A program made the position numbers and the translations under genes. Positions 1 to 23,661 of a DNA stretch of 58,348 nucleotides are shown in pieces. Origin of the DNA: Planctomycetota bacterium (GTDB lineage Bacteria > Planctomycetota > UBA8742 > UBA2392); contig JAJVIO010000048.1 of the NCBI GenBank assembly GCA_022071975.1, forward strand, positions 1-58,348, given 5' to 3'. The notes beneath the pieces are model-generated. The model did not search any database, was not told the DNA's origin, and saw only the letters and a program-made list of their open reading frames with translations. The first letter of the stretch is position 1, and each line of letters opens with the position of its first letter.

Positions 1-487
1 AAACACGAAATCACAAAAGGAGCAGCCACAAAAGGTCTGCTGTTTTTGTGCGCAGTTACTTTTGTGTTTTTGTGTTTTCGTGGCCGACTAACTCGAAGCA
101 CAGCAGACTCACGCCAAGCCGCCAAGGAGCCAGGAGAGGCACTGCTTTTCGTAGCGCCTTGGCGCCTCCGCGTGAACCCGCAGTTGCCGTGCTTCGCGGT
201 CCTTCGCGGAACTTCGCGGTTCACTCCGTTCCGAGCAAACTGCGGCAGGCCACGAAAACACGAAATCACAAAAGGAGCAGCCACAAAAGGTCTGCTGTTT
301 TTGTGCGCAGTTACTTTTGTGTTTTTGTGTTTTCGTGGCCGACTAACTCGAAGCACAGCAGACTCACGCCAAGCCGCCAAGGCGCCAAGAGATGTACTGC
401 AGTTCTTGGCGCCTTAGCGCCTCCGCGTGAACCCGCAGTTGCCGTGCTTCGCGGTCCTTCGCGGAGCTTCGCGGTTCACGCCGTTTC
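1..487. repeat. Imperfect 255-bp tandem repeat with internal inverted repeats
   Basis: The segment from position 1 recurs from position 256 with few changes, giving nearly two copies of a 255-bp unit. Each unit holds an inverted pair: CACGAAAA CACGAAAT CACAAAAG words (8-bp period) face CTTTTGTG TTTTTGTG TTTTCGTG words about 45 bp later. The second half of each unit has CGCCAAG and CTTCGCGG words that resemble repeats at 20.2, 45.6 and 51.8 kb. Open frames crossing it (46-575) follow the repeat and are not credible genes. Confidence 0.85.
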
Positions 488-495
488 GTGGCCCG

Positions 496-1491
496 TCAAC
501 TCGAAGCTGGTGTCACGGCCTTGGGCTGGGGCTTTTCGCGCCATGCCGAAGGTGACACCCCGGTGGCGCGCTTGAAGGCGCGGCTGAAGGCGGCCTCCGA
601 GTCGTACCCCACCCGGGTCGCGATGCGCAGCAGCGTGTGCGAGCTGCCGGCCAGCAGACCGGCCGCCACCTGCATGCGCCAGTTGCGCAGGTAGGTCATG
701 GGCGGCATGCCCACGTGCTCGGTGAAGCGCTCGGCGATCACGGTGCGCGACACGCCGACCCGGCGGGCCAGCTCATCCAGGGTCCACGGGTAGGCCGGGT
801 CCTGGTGGATCAGGGTGATCGCCTGCCCCACCTGCGGGTCTTTCAAACCGGCCAGCCAGCTGCGAGCGCCTTCACCCTGGGCCTCGGCGTAGCGGCGTAC
901 AGCCTCGATGAACAGCAGCTCGCTGAGTTTCGACAGCACGCCGCCGCCACCGATGCGGCGCTGATGGCTTTCCTGCATGGTCGCGTCGATCAGGTTGCCC
1001 AGCCAGTCGTTCGCCGCGCCTTCCACCACGAACATGCGCGGCAGCGACTGCAACAACGGATTGAACGGCCGCGAGTCGCAACCCAGGAATCCGCAAACGA
1101 CGCGGGCACTCTCGACGCCGCCCTCACCGGGCCTGACGTGGAAGGGCAGCGGGCGTTCCAGGCTGGGCTCGCGGTAGAGGTTCATGTTGTAAGCGCCGCG
1201 CATGTTGGGTTCGCTGGAGAGCACGTGGGCGTCGCCCTGCGGGAAGATGACGATGCTGCGCGGGCCGAGTTGCACGGGCTCGGCGCTGCCGTCCGCGAGT
1301 TGCGCCCAGCAACTGCCGTAGGCGATCACGTGGTACTCGATCAGGTGCTGGGCGCCCGGCATCAGGCGCGGCGCGAGCACTTCGCCGGGCGGCGCCTCGG
1401 TGACCCAGGGCTTGGACGCCAGCAGGTCGAAGAAGATCGCGCCGGAGAGGCGCACGTTCTTCAGCACATCCGACAGCAGGTCGCTTTCCAA
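496..1491 (-). CDS. AraC-family transcriptional regulator
   Basis: A 331-residue protein with an N-terminal cupin-like AraC ligand-binding domain (about residues 10-200) and a C-terminal double helix-turn-helix. The HTH region (about 220-320) includes the conserved ARRVGVSRTVIAERF and RVGYDSEAAFSRAFKR stretches. The start is TTG, with AAAAGGG about 8 nt upstream and no in-frame ATG before the upstream stop. It is divergent from the methyltransferase at 1660, and the 168-bp gap probably holds both promoters, so it may regulate that gene. The ligand is not predictable. Family call is firm; regulation of the neighbour is inferred from arrangement only. Confidence 0.92.
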   Translation of the reverse strand: MESDLLSDVLKNVRLSGAIFFDLLASKPWVTEAPPGEVLAPRLMPGAQHLIEYHVIAYGSCWAQLADGSAEPVQLGPRSIVIFPQGDAHVLSSEPNMRGAYNMNLYREPSLERPLPFHVRPGEGGVESARVVCGFLGCDSRPFNPLLQSLPRMFVVEGAANDWLGNLIDATMQESHQRRIGGGGVLSKLSELLFIEAVRRYAEAQGEGARSWLAGLKDPQVGQAITLIHQDPAYPWTLDELARRVGVSRTVIAERFTEHVGMPPMTYLRNWRMQVAAGLLAGSSHTLLRIATRVGYDSEAAFSRAFKRATGVSPSAWREKPQPKAVTPASS

Positions 1492-8742: not shown

Positions 8743-10461
8743 ATGGCAAAAGGCGAGACGCAGGCTGAGAAGGCTAAGAAGTTTGAGCTGCCCCCTGACC
8801 GGATTCCCAACAAGGTCAGCAAGGCGCGCATGGACTCCGACGAATGGAAGAAAAACGTCGAGGCCATGAACGCGCTGGTAGAGCAGCACCGCAGCACCGC
8901 CAACAAGCTGCGCAACGGCGGCGGCGCCAAGGCTATCGCCAAGAAAGAGGAAGCCGGCCTGCTGCCGCCGCGCAAGCGCGTGGCCGCGCTGCTGGATGAA
9001 GGCTCGCCCTTCCTTGAATACGGCCTGTACGGCGGCTTGGGCATGTACGACGAATGGGGCATTCCCAGCGCCAATGTCATCACCGGCGTCGGCAAGATCA
9101 AAGGCCGCGACGTCATGGTGGTCGCCAACGACAGCACCATCAAGGCCGGCGCGTTCTGCCCCATGACAAGCAAGAAGGTGCTGCGCGCCCAGCGCGTGGC
9201 CATGGAGAACCATCTGCCGCTGGTCTACCTGGTGGATTCCGCCGGCGTGTTCCTGCCCCTGCAGGACGAAGTGTTCCCCGACAAAGACGACTTCGGCAAG
9301 GTGTTCGACTACGCCGCGCGCATATCAGCCAGCGGCATCCCGCAGGTCAGCGCCGTGATGGGCCTGTGCGTGGCCGGTGGTGCTTACCTGCCCGTGCTCT
9401 GCGACCACGTGCTGATGACCGAGGGCAGCGGCATGTACCTCGCCGCCGCGGCACTCGCCAAGGCCGCCAAGACCACCACCGGCGACGTCACCAACGAGGA
9501 GATCGGCGGCGCGCGCGTCCACGCGGAAAAATCCGGCACGGCCGATTACGTCTGCAAGACCGACGCCGAGTGCATCGAGAAGATCCGCAGCATCGTGGGC
9601 ATGTTCAAGGACCGGCCTAAAGCACCCTTCAACCGCGAGACCGCAAAGCCGCCCGCCTACGACGCCGCCGAGCTTCGCGGGATCATCCCGGCCAATCCCT
9701 ACGCGGGCTATGAGATGCGCGACATCATCGCGCGCATTGTCGATGACAGCATCTTCAACGAGTACAAGCCCGACTACGGCAAGACGCTGCTGTGCGGCTA
9801 CGCCCGCATCGGCGGCTGGGCCGTGGGCATCGTGGCCAACCAGAAAGACACCATCCGCCACAAGGACAAGCCCTGGGAAACCGGCGGCGTGATCTACCAC
9901 GATGCGGCCGACAAAGCCGCGCGCTTCATCATGGACTGCAACCAGATCGGTGTGCCGCTGGTGTTCCTGCACGACGTCAACGGCTTCATGGTCGGCCCGG
10001 AGTCCGAGCACAACGGCATCATCCGCAAGGGCGCCAAGATGGTGAACGCCATGAGCAATTCCGTGGTGCCGAAATTCAGCATCATCATCGGCGGCTCCTT
10101 CGGCGCCGGGCACTACGCCATGTGCGGCCGTGCCTACCGGCCGCGCTACATTGCGGCGTGGCCGAGCGCGCGCTACGCGGTAATGGGCGGCGAAAGCGCG
10201 GCGAACACGCTGCTGACGCTGCAGATCAGCAAGATGAAGGCGCAGGGCAAAGAGGTAAGCGACGAAGAGGCGAAGGCGCTGCTGGCGGACATCAAGAAGC
10301 GCTACACGGACGCCACGCACCCGGCCTATGGCGCGGCAAGGCTGTGGCTGGACGCGATCATCGAGCCCGAGGAAACCCGCAACGCGCTGATCAACGCGAT
10401 CGAGATGTCCGCCAACAACCCGGAGCTGCCGGAGTACAGAACGGGCGTGCTGCAGACCTGA
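8743..10461 (+). CDS. Acyl-CoA carboxylase carboxyltransferase (beta) subunit
   Basis: A 572-residue biotin-dependent carboxyltransferase with N- and C-terminal crotonase-fold halves. Diagnostic stretches are VVANDSTIKAGAFCP, the oxyanion-hole region LVDSAGVFLPLQDEVF, MGLCVAGGAYLPVLCDH and, in the C-terminal half, IIIGGSFGAGHYAMCGRAY. The LVDSAG..LPLQ.EVFPD pattern is closest to methylcrotonoyl-CoA carboxylase beta subunits, but propionyl- or geranyl-CoA substrates cannot be excluded. GAGGAAAGG precedes the ATG, and a TATAGT box is about 50 bp upstream. No alpha (biotin carboxylase) subunit is in this window, so the partner must be encoded elsewhere. Confidence 0.9.
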   Translation: MAKGETQAEKAKKFELPPDRIPNKVSKARMDSDEWKKNVEAMNALVEQHRSTANKLRNGGGAKAIAKKEEAGLLPPRKRVAALLDEGSPFLEYGLYGGLGMYDEWGIPSANVITGVGKIKGRDVMVVANDSTIKAGAFCPMTSKKVLRAQRVAMENHLPLVYLVDSAGVFLPLQDEVFPDKDDFGKVFDYAARISASGIPQVSAVMGLCVAGGAYLPVLCDHVLMTEGSGMYLAAAALAKAAKTTTGDVTNEEIGGARVHAEKSGTADYVCKTDAECIEKIRSIVGMFKDRPKAPFNRETAKPPAYDAAELRGIIPANPYAGYEMRDIIARIVDDSIFNEYKPDYGKTLLCGYARIGGWAVGIVANQKDTIRHKDKPWETGGVIYHDAADKAARFIMDCNQIGVPLVFLHDVNGFMVGPESEHNGIIRKGAKMVNAMSNSVVPKFSIIIGGSFGAGHYAMCGRAYRPRYIAAWPSARYAVMGGESAANTLLTLQISKMKAQGKEVSDEEAKALLADIKKRYTDATHPAYGAARLWLDAIIEPEETRNALINAIEMSANNPELPEYRTGVLQT

Positions 10462-10826: not shown

Positions 10827-12152
10827 ATGCGCGCAGTGCGTTTCTTTACGGTTGCACTTTCCGCGTTGCTGTTTTCGGGCAGCGCCTGGGCCGTCGGCGT
10901 TGGCCAGCCGGCGCCCGACTTCCCCTTCCTGCAGACCTGGAACCTGGACACGGGCAAACAGCGCCTCGCGGATTTCCGCGGCTCTGTTGTTTTGCTCGAG
11001 GTCTGGGCCACGTGGTGAGGGCCCTGCAAGGGTGCCGTGCCGCACCTGCAGAAACTTTCGGACACCTACCGCTCACGCGGCTTCACCGTGGTGGCCGTCA
11101 GCGACGAACCTTCCTCAAAGATCGAACCCTACCTGCGCCAACAGGGCGTGACCTACGGCGTGGCCCGCGCGCCCGGCGTGCTGCGCACCTTCGGCGGCGA
11201 CGGCTACCCCAGCGCGTGGCTGATTGACGCCTCGGGCCGTGTGGCATGGGAAGGCCACCCCATGGGCCTGAGCGCCACGACCATCGAGCCGTTGCTGGGC
11301 ACGGCCGGCGCGGGGCCTGCCGGCACAGCGCCGGGGCAGACGTCCTCCAGTATGGAACAGTCCAACTGGTGGATCTGGCTGATCGTGGTGCCGGCGATCC
11401 TGTTCGCGGCCGCGATGGGCTGGTTTGTCTGGAGCTCGCGCGACCGCACATCCAAACAAGCGCGCACCGCCTGGTACACGCAGCAGCCCTATCCGCAGCA
11501 ACCTGGAGCTCCGCCCGGGGCCGCGCCTCCGGGGGCAGGGCCGCCGCCGGCTACATCGACGGGACTGCACCCGGTACAGATCCCGCCCCAACAGCCGGCC
11601 GCGCCGCAGCCGCCGGCCGGGCAGCCGTTCGAAAACCTGGGCTACAGCGCGCCGCCGCCAAGCTACGGCCCGGCACAGGCGCGGGTGACAGGCGGCGCCG
11701 GCCGCTACGGCGTGGACGGGCTGTCGGAGAGCCCCGGCTCAGCCACCAAGCGGCGCGAGCGCGCCGACGAGTCCAAACCTTACCTGAGCGACGACCCCAT
11801 GCAGGCGCCGCCAATGCCGCCGGCCCCGCGTCCGTTCCCGCAGCCGTTTGCGCCGCAGCGCCCCCAGGTGCCCAATGGGCAGCAGCAGCGCCCGGCGGCA
11901 CCGCCGCAGGGGCCCTACGGGCAGCCGCAGCAGCGCGCGCCGTACCCGCCGCAAGGGCATCCCGGCCAGCCGCGCGCGCCGTACCCTCCCCAGCCGCAGT
12001 ACCAGCAACCGCTGGCGCCGGAGCCGCTGGAGCAGGATGCGCTCGCGCCGGAGCCCTTCGACGATGAACCGCTGACGCCGGATAACGATTTCCCCGGCGA
12101 TGAGTTTCCGCCTTACGACACCAACCAGAACCGGCCCGGCAATCGCTATTAA
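10827..12152 (+). CDS. Selenocysteine-containing membrane-anchored thioredoxin/TlpA-like protein
   Basis: A thioredoxin-fold frame of 441 residues interrupted once by TGA at 11016-11018. The context reads W-A-T-W-TGA-G-P-C-K, so the TGA occupies the first Cys position of a CGPC motif; I read it as Sec64 in a UGPC active site. The same frame continues without another stop into a normal thioredoxin C-half, including the cis-Pro region GDGYPSAWLID. A signal peptide (cleavage after SAWA) is followed by the Trx domain, one TM helix (about residues 180-202) and a roughly 240-residue Pro/Gln-rich tail. A compact hairpin lies just after the TGA. Likely a periplasmic reductase or oxidant sensor. A nonsense mutation is the alternative but fits less well. 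Confidence 0.85.
11019..11051 (+). promoter_or_regulatory. Candidate bacterial SECIS hairpin for the first selenoprotein
   Basis: Immediately after the TGA, CTGCA (11024-11028) pairs with TGCAG (11047-11051) and GGTGC (11031-11035) pairs with GCACC (11042-11046). An AG bulge lies on the 5' side and the apical loop is CGTGCC. The loop begins 17 nt after the TGA and has G in its second position. Both features agree with the known bacterial SECIS consensus: a short stem-loop just downstream of UGA with G within the first two loop bases. Confidence 0.75.
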
Positions 12153-12205: not shown

Positions 12206-12550
12206 ATGTCCTATGACCAGCGATTGTTTGAGCGAATGCTGGACGCGCTCGAGCGCAAGAACGGCTGGTCCGAAAAGGACATGTATGGCGGCCGCGTCTG
12301 CATCATCAACGGCCGTCCGTTCGTCGGCGCCGTGGAGGGCGGTTTGATCGCCCTGTGTCCCGAAGACGCGCTGCAGAAGCACCTGGAACTCAAGCATTGC
12401 ACCCCCTTCACCTTCGACGGCAAAACTCTGCCCGGCTGGGTGAAGGTCAGCATGGATGCCCTCAAGACCGCCAAGCAGCTGTCGCGCTGGGTGGACGCCA
12501 GCTACACCCATGCCGCCGCCATGGCTCCCGCCAAGGCGCGCAAGAAGTAG
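12206..12550 (+). CDS. TfoX N-terminal-domain family protein
   Basis: A 114-residue protein of the TfoX_N fold. It has the family pattern M.DALE.K.GWSEKDMYGGRVCIINGRPFVG, followed by ALCPEDALQKHL and PGWVKV. Free-standing TfoX-N proteins are common in bacteria outside the competence context of gammaproteobacterial TfoX/Sxy, and their function is not established. The ATG at 12206 was chosen because GGAGA lies 6 nt upstream; the ATG-like start 42 bp earlier lacks conserved sequence. It sits between the two candidate selenoprotein genes on the same strand (53 and 36 bp gaps), so the three could be co-transcribed. Confidence 0.85.
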   Translation: MSYDQRLFERMLDALERKNGWSEKDMYGGRVCIINGRPFVGAVEGGLIALCPEDALQKHLELKHCTPFTFDGKTLPGWVKVSMDALKTAKQLSRWVDASYTHAAAMAPAKARKK

Positions 12551-12586: not shown

Positions 12587-13030
12587 ATGCAGAAGCTCCT
12601 GAACAACCTGCCTTACCTGATGGCCGCGGCCGTGCTGCTGGGTGTGCTGGGGTATTCCTTCTGGTTTCGGGAGTTACCTCAGGCCGAGGGGCGCATCACC
12701 GGCGACTACGCCGCCGCCGCTGAGCTTGCCCAGGAAGGCGGGATACCGCTGTTCGTGGCGGTGGATATGGCCCCCACCTGATGGTCGTGCGATTCGCTGG
12801 TGCAGCGAATGGAAAAGACCGAGGTGGTGAAGTCGGCCGTCAACGCCAACCAGATCGTGGTGGCCTGCGCCTACCAGGGCCATGTGGCGGACAGCGTGAA
12901 AGCCGCGCTGCCCAGTGGCTTCAACGAACGCCAGTTCGTGGCCAAGTTCGTGAACGGCGAACTGGTGGCCCTGCGCAAGGGTCTGCCGGAAGAAGCCATC
13001 CATGCGCTGCTGACGCAAGCGGCGCAGTAA
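12587..13030 (+). CDS. Second candidate selenoprotein: membrane-anchored thioredoxin-like, UxxC
   Basis: A frame of 147 residues with a single internal TGA at 12779-12781. The N-terminus has one hydrophobic anchor (about residues 8-27), then a segment GIPLFVAVDMAPT that resembles the first strand of thioredoxin-7/DUF255-like domains. Next comes TGA-W-S-C, so the TGA is the first position of a CxxC-type motif: Sec65-W-S-Cys68. The frame continues through a helix and strand (SLVQRMEKTEVVKSAV, QIVVACAY) to a normal stop. A perfect hairpin follows the TGA. No strong Shine-Dalgarno is seen, so translation may be coupled to tfoX upstream. Probably an extracytoplasmic redox protein; partner unknown. 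Confidence 0.83.
12782..12810 (+). promoter_or_regulatory. Candidate bacterial SECIS hairpin for the second selenoprotein
   Basis: ATTCGCT (12792-12798) and AGCGAAT (12804-12810) form a perfect 7-bp stem with loop GGTGC. The loop starts 17 nt after the TGA, identical to the spacing in the 11019-11051 hairpin, and begins with GG, matching the bacterial SECIS loop preference. Confidence 0.75.
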
Positions 13031-21246: not shown

Positions 21247-23661
21247 ATGGCGGCCGGCTCACACGTTGAAATGCCTTCCGGGCGCGCGGCGCGCGCCGTC
21301 AAGGCAATCGGCTTCTCCAGGCTGCTGATCCAGAAAAAGTACTGGCCCATCCACATCCTGTTCGTCGCCGCCGTCAGCATCATCGGCGTCGGCTACCTGG
21401 GCCTGGAGACCTACAAGGGCGCGCCGCCGATCGCCGACTTCGTCACGCCTGACGGCAAAACCGTCTTCACCGTCGAGGACATCAACCGCGGCAAAGAGGT
21501 CTTCCACCTGCGCGCACTCATGAGCTACGGCTCGTTCTGGGGCGACGGCGCCGAGCGCGGGCCCGACTTCACGGCCGAGGCGCTGCACCACACGGCCGTC
21601 AGCATGACCGCCTTCTACGAGGCCGAGAAAGCGAGCGACGGCGAGCTCACGCAGGAAGAGCGCGACGCCATCAGCGCCCGCGTCAAGCGCGAGTTGCGCC
21701 AGAACGGCTGGGATGAGCAGGCCGAGCGCATCACCATCACGCAGGCCCAGGCGCAGGGCTTCACCGAGCTGAACACCCACTACACCCGCGTGTTCACGGA
21801 CCCCGAGTACCCCGAGGCTCTGCACCCCACCAACTACATCAGCGACCCCGAAGACATCCGCGCCCTCACCGCCTACTTCTACTGGGGCGGCTGGGTGGCC
21901 GCCGCGCAGCGCCCCGGCGAGGATTACAGCTACACCCACAACTGGCCCTACGACCCGGCCGTGGGCAACTCCCCCACCCAGGCGACCATTCTCTGGAGCG
22001 TGCTGTCGATCTTTGCGCTGTTCATGGGCATCGGCGCGGTGCTGTACGTCTACGGCCAGCTGCGCAACATCGGCGACCCCTTTGAGGCCAACGGCACGCC
22101 CGCACTGACCACAGCCGAGCTGGAATCCGGCTCCGAGCACGTGCGCCCGACGCAGCGGCTGGTCTACAAGTTCTTCGCGTTCGCCATGATCGTGTTCCTG
22201 GTGCAGGTGGGCGCGGGCGTGCTGAGCGCCAACGACTTCGTGCGCACGGACCGGCTGCTGGGCATCGACATCGCGGCGCTGTTGCCGATCACCGTCGTGC
22301 GCAGCTGGCACGTGATCCTGCAGATCTTCTGGTTCTTCATCTGCTGGATCGGCTACACCATCTTCTTCCTGCCCGAGCTTTCGAAAGTCCCGCGCGGGCA
22401 GCGCACGCTGATCAACCTGCTGTTCTGGATGGGCATCCTGGTGGGCGCGGGCGTGTTGTTCGGCATCTACCTCGGGCCCAAGGGCTACCTCAACGAGCAG
22501 CTTGCCTACTGGCTCGGCAGCCAGGGCTGGGAGTTCATGGAGCTCGGCCGCCTGTGGCAGATCGTGATGCTGGCGGCCTTCGTGCTCTGGATCGTGATCA
22601 TCTACCGCGCCGTGCGCCCCTGGCTGAATCGCAGCAACCTGTGGTCGGTGCCGTCCTGGCTGCTGTACGGCAGCAGCATCATGGTCGCCTTCCTGTTCTT
22701 CGGCCTGCTGGTGCGGCCGCAGACCAACTTCGCGATTTCGGATTTCTGGCGCTGGATGGTCGTGCACATGTGGGTGGAGGCGACGTTTGAGGTGTTCACC
22801 ACGGTGGTGGTGGGCTACATGCTGGTGCAGATGGGCGTGATCCGCCGCGCGATGGCCGAGCGCGTGATCTTCCTCGCCGTGATGCTGTTCCTGCTGACGG
22901 CGCTGGTGGGCATCTCGCACAACTTCTACTGGATCGCCAAGCCGACGCCGATCATCGCCCTGGGCTCGGTGTTCTCAACGCTGCAGGTGCTGCCGCTGCT
23001 GCTGCTGACCCTGGACGCCTGGCGCACGCGCCTCGAGCTCAAGCGCGCCGACGCCCTGGCCGTTGAGGGCCGCCAGGCGGTGGTGATGGACGGCGTGTGG
23101 CTGTTCATCCTGGCGGTGAACTTCTGGAACATCTTCGGCGCGGGCGTGTTCGGCTCGATGATCAACCTGCCGATCGTGAACTACTACGAGCACGGCACCT
23201 GGCTGACCGGCAACCACGCCCACGCGGCGATGTTCGGCGTGAAGGGCAACGTGGCGATCGCGGGCATGCTGTTCTGCTGCCAGCACCTGTTCAAACGCTC
23301 GGCCTGGAACGCGAGGCTGATCCGGGTGGTGTTCTGGTCGCTGCAGATCGGGCTGGTGATGATGATGGTGCTGGCGCTGTTCCCGCTGGGCATGCACCAG
23401 GTGCTGATCGTGCTGGATGAAGGCCTGTGGAAGGCGCGCACGCAGGAAGTGGTGACCGGCTCGTTCTGGTCGCGGCTGATCTACCTGCGCTCGATCGGCG
23501 GCACGGTGTTCCTGGCGGGCGGCGTGCTGCCGCTGGTGTGGTTCATCTTGTCGCGGGCGCGCAAGATGGTGCCCGAGGTGGAAGACCACCGCGGCGAGTG
23601 GGACGTCTACGACACCGAGGTTGACCGCGACTCAAAGGTATGGGCCGACTTCGACGACTAG
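21247..23661 (+). CDS. qNOR-family membrane enzyme, putative nitric oxide dismutase
   Basis: An 804-residue protein of the quinol NO reductase (NorZ) architecture: TM1 (about residues 33-54), a periplasmic cytochrome-c-like domain without a CxxCH haem motif (55-240), then about 13 helices of the NorB core. Haem ligands are probably His355 (SWHVILQIFWF) and His657/His659 (GNHAHAAMFG). The FeB site has His507 and Glu511 (HMWVE) and His558, but the next residue, normally the third FeB His, is Asn559 (SHNFYW instead of GHHYFW). That substitution is described for NO dismutase candidates, which would disproportionate 2 NO to N2 and O2. GGAGG lies 5 nt before the ATG. Ordinary NO reduction remains possible. 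Confidence 0.88.
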   Translation: MAAGSHVEMPSGRAARAVKAIGFSRLLIQKKYWPIHILFVAAVSIIGVGYLGLETYKGAPPIADFVTPDGKTVFTVEDINRGKEVFHLRALMSYGSFWGDGAERGPDFTAEALHHTAVSMTAFYEAEKASDGELTQEERDAISARVKRELRQNGWDEQAERITITQAQAQGFTELNTHYTRVFTDPEYPEALHPTNYISDPEDIRALTAYFYWGGWVAAAQRPGEDYSYTHNWPYDPAVGNSPTQATILWSVLSIFALFMGIGAVLYVYGQLRNIGDPFEANGTPALTTAELESGSEHVRPTQRLVYKFFAFAMIVFLVQVGAGVLSANDFVRTDRLLGIDIAALLPITVVRSWHVILQIFWFFICWIGYTIFFLPELSKVPRGQRTLINLLFWMGILVGAGVLFGIYLGPKGYLNEQLAYWLGSQGWEFMELGRLWQIVMLAAFVLWIVIIYRAVRPWLNRSNLWSVPSWLLYGSSIMVAFLFFGLLVRPQTNFAISDFWRWMVVHMWVEATFEVFTTVVVGYMLVQMGVIRRAMAERVIFLAVMLFLLTALVGISHNFYWIAKPTPIIALGSVFSTLQVLPLLLLTLDAWRTRLELKRADALAVEGRQAVVMDGVWLFILAVNFWNIFGAGVFGSMINLPIVNYYEHGTWLTGNHAHAAMFGVKGNVAIAGMLFCCQHLFKRSAWNARLIRVVFWSLQIGLVMMMVLALFPLGMHQVLIVLDEGLWKARTQEVVTGSFWSRLIYLRSIGGTVFLAGGVLPLVWFILSRARKMVPEVEDHRGEWDVYDTEVDRDSKVWADFDD

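What the first reader, a model, noticed from the sequence alone, without database searches (positions are those of the whole stretch)
10827..12152. In-frame TGA at the CxxC position of a thioredoxin: probable selenoprotein with a long Pro/Gln tail
Seen: the frame reads W-A-T-W-TGA-G-P-C-K and continues in the same frame to a stop 1.1 kb later, with normal thioredoxin residues on both sides. The TGA sits exactly where the first active-site Cys belongs. A bulged hairpin follows, with its loop 17 nt after the TGA and a G in the second loop position. Known: bacterial Sec insertion needs a SECIS stem-loop immediately downstream of UGA. Inference: a UGPC selenothioredoxin, membrane-anchored, with a disordered cytoplasmic-type tail I do not know from other selenoproteins.
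Basis: partly seen in the sequence, partly recalled or inferred. Interest (0 to 1): 0.95.

Follow-up and report, generated by a model that had tools for sequence, protein, structure and literature searches.

The report
Membrane-anchored selenium thioredoxin beside another
This bacterial gene has an in-frame TGA stop codon exactly where a thioredoxin's first active-site cysteine belongs; the codon is predicted to be read as selenocysteine, giving a likely membrane-anchored enzyme that would reduce disulfide bonds outside the inner membrane, and a second gene with such a TGA lies just downstream.

Summary
ORF 10827-12152 reads WATW-TGA-GPC inside a thioredoxin domain, followed by a predicted membrane helix and a 237-residue Pro/Gln-rich tail. 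The genome has selA, selB, selD and a UCA tRNA-Sec. Of 30 fetched loci (own gene included), 25 have TGA and 5 a Cys codon at this site. The nearest database proteins start just after the TGA. The hairpin fits the published bacterial SECIS model, but so do 205 of 300 background positions. Beyond the finding: (1) a second TGA gene, 12587-13030 (APT-TGA-WSC), has 15 members in the order, own included: 14 TGA, 1 TAA, no Cys; its hairpin codons are frozen (TCG 15/15, CTG 15/15) while the loop's third base varies, the clearest SECIS evidence here. (2) Gene 1, a TfoX_N gene and gene 2 keep their order in 12 genomes. (3) The genome's one DsbD_TM match carries two in-frame TGAs, both at UxxC. Gene 1 is a new architecture of the known UxxC TlpA-like selenoprotein kind (phylum likely Planctomycetota); the anchored, tailed form was seen only in this GTDB family. 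Best model: a DsbD-fed envelope Sec reductase. Se insertion, donor, substrate and tail partner are untested.

The parts
10827..12152 (+). gene 1: TlpA/ResA-like thioredoxin protein, 441 aa with U64 (TGA), predicted selenoprotein
11016..11018 (+). in-frame TGA at the first active-site position (UGPC)
   Evidence: TGA in 25 and Cys codon in 5 of 30 fetched loci, own included
11024..11051 (+). predicted SECIS-like hairpin, loop CGTGCC at 11036-11041
   Evidence: fits published model but background rate is high
10827..10895 (+). predicted signal peptide or N-terminal hydrophobic segment (residues about 1-23)
   Evidence: hydropathy; no signal-peptide program available
10899..11297 (+). thioredoxin domain, residues 25-157
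   Evidence: Pfam; AlphaFold2 block pLDDT 82-95 for residues 21-160
11367..11435 (+). predicted single transmembrane helix, residues about 181-203, followed by RDR
   Evidence: W182, W184, F193, A196, G198, W199, F200, R205, D206 invariant
11439..12149 (+). Pro/Gln-rich tail, residues 205-441 (25.7% P, 12.7% Q), predicted disordered
   Evidence: conserved short motifs
12105..12149 (+). C-terminal motif FPPYDTNQNRPGNRY
   Evidence: FPPYDTNQN-like motif in 16 of the 18 proteins (by eye); other genera end differently
12206..12550 (+). TfoX_N-domain protein between the two TGA genes
   Evidence: Pfam PF04993 37.5 bits, cut-off 30.1; order conserved
12587..13030 (+). gene 2: thioredoxin-like protein with N-terminal helix, 147 aa, TGA at residue 65 (UWSC), predicted selenoprotein
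12779..12781 (+). in-frame TGA of gene 2
   Evidence: 14 TGA, 1 TAA, 0 Cys in 15 members, own included
12793..12809 (+). SECIS-like hairpin of gene 2, TTCGCTG-GTG-CAGCGAA
   Evidence: z -3.9, -2.8 against synonymous shuffles; frozen synonymous codons in the stem
8743..10461 (+). carboxyl transferase (acyl-CoA carboxylase) upstream neighbour, ends in TGA
   Evidence: Pfam 450.6 bits; neighbour in relatives

Best explanation
Window 10827-12152 encodes a thioredoxin-domain protein with an in-frame TGA in place of its first active-site cysteine; this codon is predicted to be decoded as selenocysteine, making a likely envelope-facing, membrane-anchored Sec thiol-disulfide reductase (UGPC) with a probably cytoplasmic Pro/Gln-rich tail. 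Shown here by sequence: the UGPC frame, the invariant Glu, Pro and second Cys, the selABCD genes, TGA/Cys interchange in relatives, the conserved neighbourhood with a second TGA gene, and a DsbD with two in-frame TGAs. Inferred: the N-terminal segment exports the domain; Sec64 attacks disulfides and Cys67 resolves the intermediate; DsbD re-reduces it from cytoplasmic thioredoxin; the tail holds short docking motifs for an unknown partner; gene 2 works in the same envelope pathway, as another acceptor or a relay.
For: Sec machinery: selB 334 bits, selA 548, selD 391, tRNA-Sec with UCA anticodon. Codons at the site in 30 fetched loci, own included: 25 TGA, 5 Cys. In the 17 genomes held for the order, 79 of 108 hits hold one TGA and none TAA/TAG (counted by eye; position read only in the 30 loci). 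Tree: three Sec/Cys changes, Sec also in the four outgroup paralogues. Best-scoring solved relatives are ResA/DsbE-type reductases. G26, E58, U/C64, C67, P128 invariant in 15 of 15. Gene 1-TfoX_N-gene 2 order in 12 genomes. DsbD of this genome has UGPC and UKNC sites. In the 15 genomes with both, DsbD's last domain is Sec in 10 of 10 with Sec gene 1 and 2 of 5 with Cys gene 1.
Against: No Se or protein data. The hairpin after this TGA is only weakly distinctive: 8 of 10 gene-1 TGA sites fit the published model, but so do 205 of 300 background positions; only 1 of 10 lies in the most stable tenth of its own gene; and against synonymous shuffles the 5 Cys sites fold no worse (mean z -0.88) than the 10 TGA sites (mean z -0.61), with two paralogues at z above +2.6. 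Five relatives carry Cys, three of them in the same genus. The DsbD link is a co-occurrence not corrected for kinship (p 0.022); DsbD's first domain does not follow gene 1 (Cys in G009-G011, where gene 1 is Sec). Side of the tail and substrate are not shown. Nearest relative G008 has a frame break in the tail.
Confidence: 0.72

Rival explanations
1. The TGA is a true stop: the gene is a decayed or wrongly sequenced thioredoxin, or makes only a 63-residue fragment plus a separate downstream ORF from GTG 11037.
For: The nearest database protein is a 371-aa ORF starting just after the TGA (P0012, 25 member sequences); a lone base error could make TGC into TGA.
Against: Same codon in other species (25 of 30 loci), coding-like composition on both sides, Pfam domain spans it, no TAA/TAG inside 108 hits, full Sec machinery.
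Confidence: 0.04
2. UGA is read as another amino acid (Cys, Trp or Arg by a code change or suppressor) and not as Sec.
For: None found beyond the open frame.
Against: TGA ends the neighbouring gene; only two coding-like in-frame TGAs in 58 kb, both at UxxC sites; tRNA-Sec, selA, selB and selD present.
Confidence: 0.02
3. It is a Sec protein, but its job is cytochrome c maturation (a ResA/CcmG-type specific reductase) rather than general envelope thiol reduction.
For: Best-scoring solved structures are ResA and DsbE; NCBIfam ResA 68 bits.
Against: Far below the ResA cut-off of 170 bits; none of the neighbours scanned with Pfam is a cytochrome maturation gene; the acidic residue after CxxC typical of ResA/TlpA (recalled) is absent. 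ResB/CcsA were not searched.
Confidence: 0.15
4. It is a sensor: the Sec site outside the membrane reads oxidant level and the tail relays it to a cytoplasmic partner, perhaps the TfoX_N protein coded next door.
For: Tail keeps short motifs and ends in a zinc-ribbon-like stretch in four relatives (Pfam for one); the TfoX_N gene lies between genes 1 and 2 in 12 genomes and beside gene 1 in two more.
Against: No direct evidence of interaction; the tail is otherwise variable and predicted disordered.
Confidence: 0.15

Closest known systems
UxxC thiol-disulfide isomerase-like / Prx-like / redoxin-family selenoproteins (PMC13188914 Table 1; PMC1088965)
   Same: thioredoxin domain of the AhpC-TSA/Redoxin type with Sec at the first active-site position
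   Different: here with a predicted transmembrane helix, a long Pro/Gln-rich or zinc-ribbon tail and a conserved second TGA neighbour; the parts of these papers that I read mention no such tail
ResA / TlpA / CcmG envelope thiol-disulfide oxidoreductases
   Same: domain, CxxC-type site and conserved Pro; N-terminal hydrophobic segment
   Different: Sec instead of Cys; predicted anchor and tail C-terminal; scores below NCBIfam cut-offs
NF041054 ResA-like WAxxUGC motif protein
   Same: Sec-containing ResA-like protein with WA near the Sec
   Different: 33 bits against a cut-off of 300; motif here is WATWUGPC
Soluble TGA-containing TlpA proteins of the same phylum
   Same: mostly WATWUGPC with a conserved stretch after it; several per genome in this order
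   Different: no Pro/Gln tail in the hits printed for 20 hand-picked regions from 20 of the 119 genomes outside the order with a match; most end in a helical-looking charged region
Thioredoxin_7 / DsbD thioredoxin domains (for gene 2)
   Same: similar layout around UxxC in gene 2 and both DsbD domains (by eye); thioredoxin fold
   Different: below the Pfam cut-off (22.4 against 27); no NCBIfam family above cut-off; stand-alone with N-terminal helix; no Cys in 15 members

Membership tests
bacterial UGA-Sec selenoprotein | in-frame UGA at a redox position that aligns with Cys in homologues | tested here: met
bacterial UGA-Sec selenoprotein | selA, selB, selC, selD in the genome | tested here: met
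bacterial UGA-Sec selenoprotein | SECIS hairpin immediately downstream (loop 3-9 nt, G in first two, 16-37 nt spacing, MFE <= -7.5) | tested here: inconclusive
   criteria met (loop 6, spacing 17, -17.7 kcal/mol) but 205 of 300 background positions also meet them; model quoted from PMC13188914
bacterial UGA-Sec selenoprotein | selenium shown in the protein | not testable with these tools
   needs 75Se labelling or mass spectrometry
UxxC TlpA/Prx-like selenoproteins (PF00578, PF08534) | AhpC-TSA/Redoxin domain with UxxC | tested here: met
   56.7 and 48.1 bits, above cut-offs
ResA (NCBIfam NF002854) | score above curated cut-off | tested here: not met
   68.1 against 170
ResA/TlpA | acidic residue shortly after CxxC (recalled) | tested here: not met
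   alignment A1: K-G-A-V after UGPC in the window protein
WAxxUGC ResA-like selenoprotein NF041054 | score above cut-off and UGC motif | tested here: not met
   33.2 against 300; motif UGPC
Thioredoxin_7 (gene 2) | score above Pfam cut-off | tested here: not met
   22.4 against 27
known selenoprotein families of NCBIfam (gene 2) | score above any cut-off | tested here: not met
   only NF041382 at 14.2 against 350

The most novel reading that the evidence does not exclude
This lineage runs its envelope thiol chemistry on selenium from end to end: a DsbD with Sec in its thioredoxin domains passes electrons to a family of Sec-TlpA reductases, one of which is membrane-anchored and reports or docks through a motif-bearing cytoplasmic tail, together with a new Sec-only thioredoxin family (gene 2) whose selenium is not replaced by sulfur in any relative found.
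Probability: 0.35. Interest if true: 0.78.

Novelty: new variant of a known kind. Interest (0 to 1): 0.62.

Why it matters
If Sec is inserted, this lineage gives a natural test of why an envelope reductase uses selenium: the same anchored protein exists with TGA and with Cys inside one genus, while its neighbour, gene 2, has no Cys form among 15 members. The two-TGA DsbD suggests that donor and acceptor of a redox relay can both use selenium. It also shows that annotation cuts such genes in two: the seven database proteins found for gene 2 are pieces of 88-108 aa.

Tried and rejected
Naming the organism: the only genome-contig scan used a pattern that demands Cys, so it returned Cys TlpAs of many phyla and no near relative; the phylum rests on database names of a few close proteins (Planctomycetes / Planctomycetota), not on a tree. 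Code change and pseudogene readings were rejected (see rivals). RNA folding as sole proof was rejected: z is -1.3 or weaker for this gene, Cys sites fold no worse, and the published SECIS model fits 205 of 300 background positions in my loose scan. The position test shows the hairpin better in soluble paralogues (8 of 15 in the top tenth of their gene) and gene 2 (8 of 14). Literature (open-licence PMC papers only): on Planctomycetes and selenocysteine listed PMC4807772, which reports selenoproteins in other Planctomycetes (passages), and no paper whose listing pointed to this protein; others (anchored or Pro-rich Sec thioredoxin; DsbD with Sec; 10 of 161 shown) likewise. PMC1088965 was read as passages; of PMC13188914, section 7 parts 1-2 of 3 and passages. 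The rest of what searches list was seen as listings only. misread minus-strand loci and is replaced; one search used coordinates off by one and is replaced. One search's pattern missed some first domains of DsbD; one search replaces it there. One search's comment speaks of counting one search's hits, which that script did not do: counts were made by eye. L059 (TAA) was left out of alignment A2; P0028 and the lower hits (17 of 120 listed were used) were left out of A4.

Full report
WHAT IS THERE. ORF 10827-12152 (+) runs from ATG to TAA and contains one TGA at 11016-11018; read through, it gives 441 residues with the motif WATW-U-GPC. Pfam AhpC-TSA and Redoxin match across the TGA above their cut-offs. 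A scan of the whole window for in-frame TGA with 45 open, coding-like codons on either side gave two sites: 11016 and 12779.

THE SEC MACHINERY. The own genome (G000, 4.24 Mb, 88.7% complete) holds selB (334 bits), selA (548 bits), selD (391 bits, itself with one TGA) and tRNA-Sec (73 bits, anticodon UCA by ARAGORN). The tRNA lies 0.8 kb after selA at the end of one contig and again at the start of another, probably one gene at a contig overlap. In the order, 16 of 17 genomes have a tRNA-Sec; none was found in G001.

RELATIVES OF GENE 1. Its thioredoxin domain was searched in all 17 genomes held for the order: 108 hits, of which 79 contain exactly one TGA, 29 none, and none a TAA or TAG (counted by eye). 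For the 30 loci fetched, own included, the codon at the active site was read: 25 TGA, 4 TGC, 1 TGT. Three of the Cys forms are in the window's own genus. A tree of 29 anchored proteins plus 4 soluble outgroup paralogues needs three Sec/Cys changes; since the outgroup is Sec, loss of Sec is the simpler direction. Seven of those rows are truncated database ORFs whose codon could not be read and were left out of the count. In 392 genomes of the phylum, the 150 hits listed (own family included; more exist) hold one TGA in 105 and none in 45 (by eye), so UxxC TlpA proteins look common there; only the 30 loci and the 20 regions below were read at the codon. I fetched 20 hand-picked regions from 20 of the 119 genomes outside the order with a match; no hit printed from them had the Pro/Gln tail. 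Within the GTDB family, 15 of 16 genomes have the anchored form (all but G004).

ANATOMY. AlphaFold2 gives a confident thioredoxin domain (block pLDDT 82-95 for residues 21-160), a helix at 181-216 and a tail at 57 or lower per block after residue 220; hydropathy places an N-terminal hydrophobic segment and one membrane span at about 181-203. In the 15-row alignment, E58, U/C64, C67 and P128 are invariant. E58 sits where E. coli thioredoxin has Asp26, and P128 at the cis-Pro (both recalled). The tail is 25.7% Pro and 12.7% Gln but not featureless: 16 of the 18 proteins (the Sec window protein, Cys relatives and truncated ORFs) end in a motif like FPPYDTNQN, and DG..ESPG and PYLG-type motifs recur (by eye). 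Other genera end differently: PYLGQPP (L027, L028, L032), FRPFNAGGR (L042, L044), or a CxxC-CxxC zinc-ribbon-like stretch (L035, L036, L037, L046); for L036 Pfam Zn_Ribbon_1 is just over its cut-off (26 against 25).

THE SECOND GENE. Gene 2 is found in 15 of 17 genomes of the order, own included; 14 have TGA and one (G013) TAA at the same position; none has Cys. In 392 genomes of the phylum it is found in the same 15 plus one weak match. The model is a thioredoxin fold with an N-terminal helix (mean pLDDT 84; the 50 best Foldseek hits shown are thioredoxins and thioredoxin domains). Its hairpin is the best SECIS evidence of this report: the codons of Ser, Leu and Gln around the loop are TCG, CTG and CAG in 15 of 15, while the loop codon GTN uses all four third bases; of the 20 conserved columns with four or more synonymous codons that were compared, only this Ser and Leu are fully uniform, the next being 86%. 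Its loop lies 18 nt after the TGA, gene 1's 17 nt. The seven database proteins found for this family are pieces of 88-108 aa that end before or start after the site. NCBIfam has no family for it above cut-off; I could match no Table 1 entry of PMC13188914 to it by name, though some entries there are generic.

THE SETTING. Genes 1, TfoX_N and 2 follow each other in the same order in the window and 11 other genomes; in two (G002, G003) gene 2 lies elsewhere; in G013 genes 1 and 2 are on separate short contigs. The genome has one DsbD_TM match. Its ORF carries two in-frame TGAs, at UGPC in a first Thioredoxin_7 domain and UKNC in the last domain. Among the 16 genomes with a match, the last domain is Sec in 12 and Cys in 4 (G003, G004, G005, G006); the first domain is Sec in 6 (G000, G004, G008, G014, G015, G016), Cys in 7 and was not seen in 3. 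Where gene 1 is Sec, DsbD's last domain is Sec in 10 of 10; where gene 1 is Cys, in 2 of 5 (Fisher p 0.022, not corrected for kinship). The first domain does not follow gene 1.

THE HAIRPIN OF GENE 1. It fits the published bacterial model (loop 6 nt, G second, spacing 17, -17.7 kcal/mol), and by my loose scan 8 of 10 gene-1 TGA sites, 13 of 15 paralogue sites and 14 of 14 gene-2 sites fit, against 1 of 5 Cys sites of gene 1 and 205 of 300 background codons; the one TAA site of gene 2 also fits. Under the position test the window's hairpin is in the top 14% of its own gene; 1 of 10 gene-1 TGA sites and 0 of 5 Cys sites are in the top tenth. Against synonymous shuffles the Cys sites (mean z -0.88) do not fold worse than the TGA sites (-0.61). 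So structure supports but does not prove; homology and machinery carry the case.

HOW IT LIKELY WORKS. Inferred: the domain is exported, anchored by its helix, and reduces disulfides by Sec64/Cys67; DsbD returns electrons; the tail binds a cytoplasmic partner by its motifs; gene 2 serves the same pathway. A sensor role of the tail, or a role in cytochrome c maturation, remain open.

KNOWN OR NEW. UxxC TlpA-like, Prx-like and Redoxin selenoproteins are listed kinds (PMC13188914; PMC1088965). Apparently new, as far as the searches reach, are the anchored Pro/Gln-tailed form, the conserved pair with gene 2, and the two-TGA DsbD. Verdict: real, well supported as a predicted selenoprotein, a new variant of a known kind with a probably new neighbour family.

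Noticed in passing
L059 / L174 (G013:C130:16560-16982): Relative of gene 2 has TAA exactly at the Sec position with the hairpin codons kept; that genome's tRNA-Sec has anticodon UCA and its gene 1 uses TGA. Assembly error, recent loss or odd decoding: unexplained.
   Followed up: partly
L195 (G000:C31) 583-585 and 2572-2574: The genome's DsbD has two in-frame TGAs, both at UxxC; DsbD and TsoB NCBIfam models score about 185 bits, under their cut-offs of 330 and 805. Two-Sec forms also in G008, G014, G015, G016.
   Followed up: partly
P0006, P0007, P0010, P0011; L055: Relatives of gene 2 carry a Cys-rich C-terminal tail (DCKSCDDKTCDDC type) that the window's gene 2 lacks.
   Followed up: no
G001 (L034, L048): Genome of the sister family has three TlpA hits, each with one TGA, but no tRNA-Sec was found in its about 260 contigs.
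   Followed up: no
G000:C1, C4, C14, C52, C83: Five further TlpA-like hits with one in-frame TGA in the own genome; only the C1 copy was read at codon level.
   Followed up: partly
L020 / L178 (G008): The nearest relative's tail has a frame break between about residues 366 and 396.
   Followed up: no
window 46-575: A stretch of about 26 residues occurs twice in the ORFs at the window start, suggesting a short DNA repeat.
   Followed up: no
window 21247-23661: Long multi-helix ORF that looks like a quinol nitric oxide reductase (recalled from its sequence, not searched).
   Followed up: no
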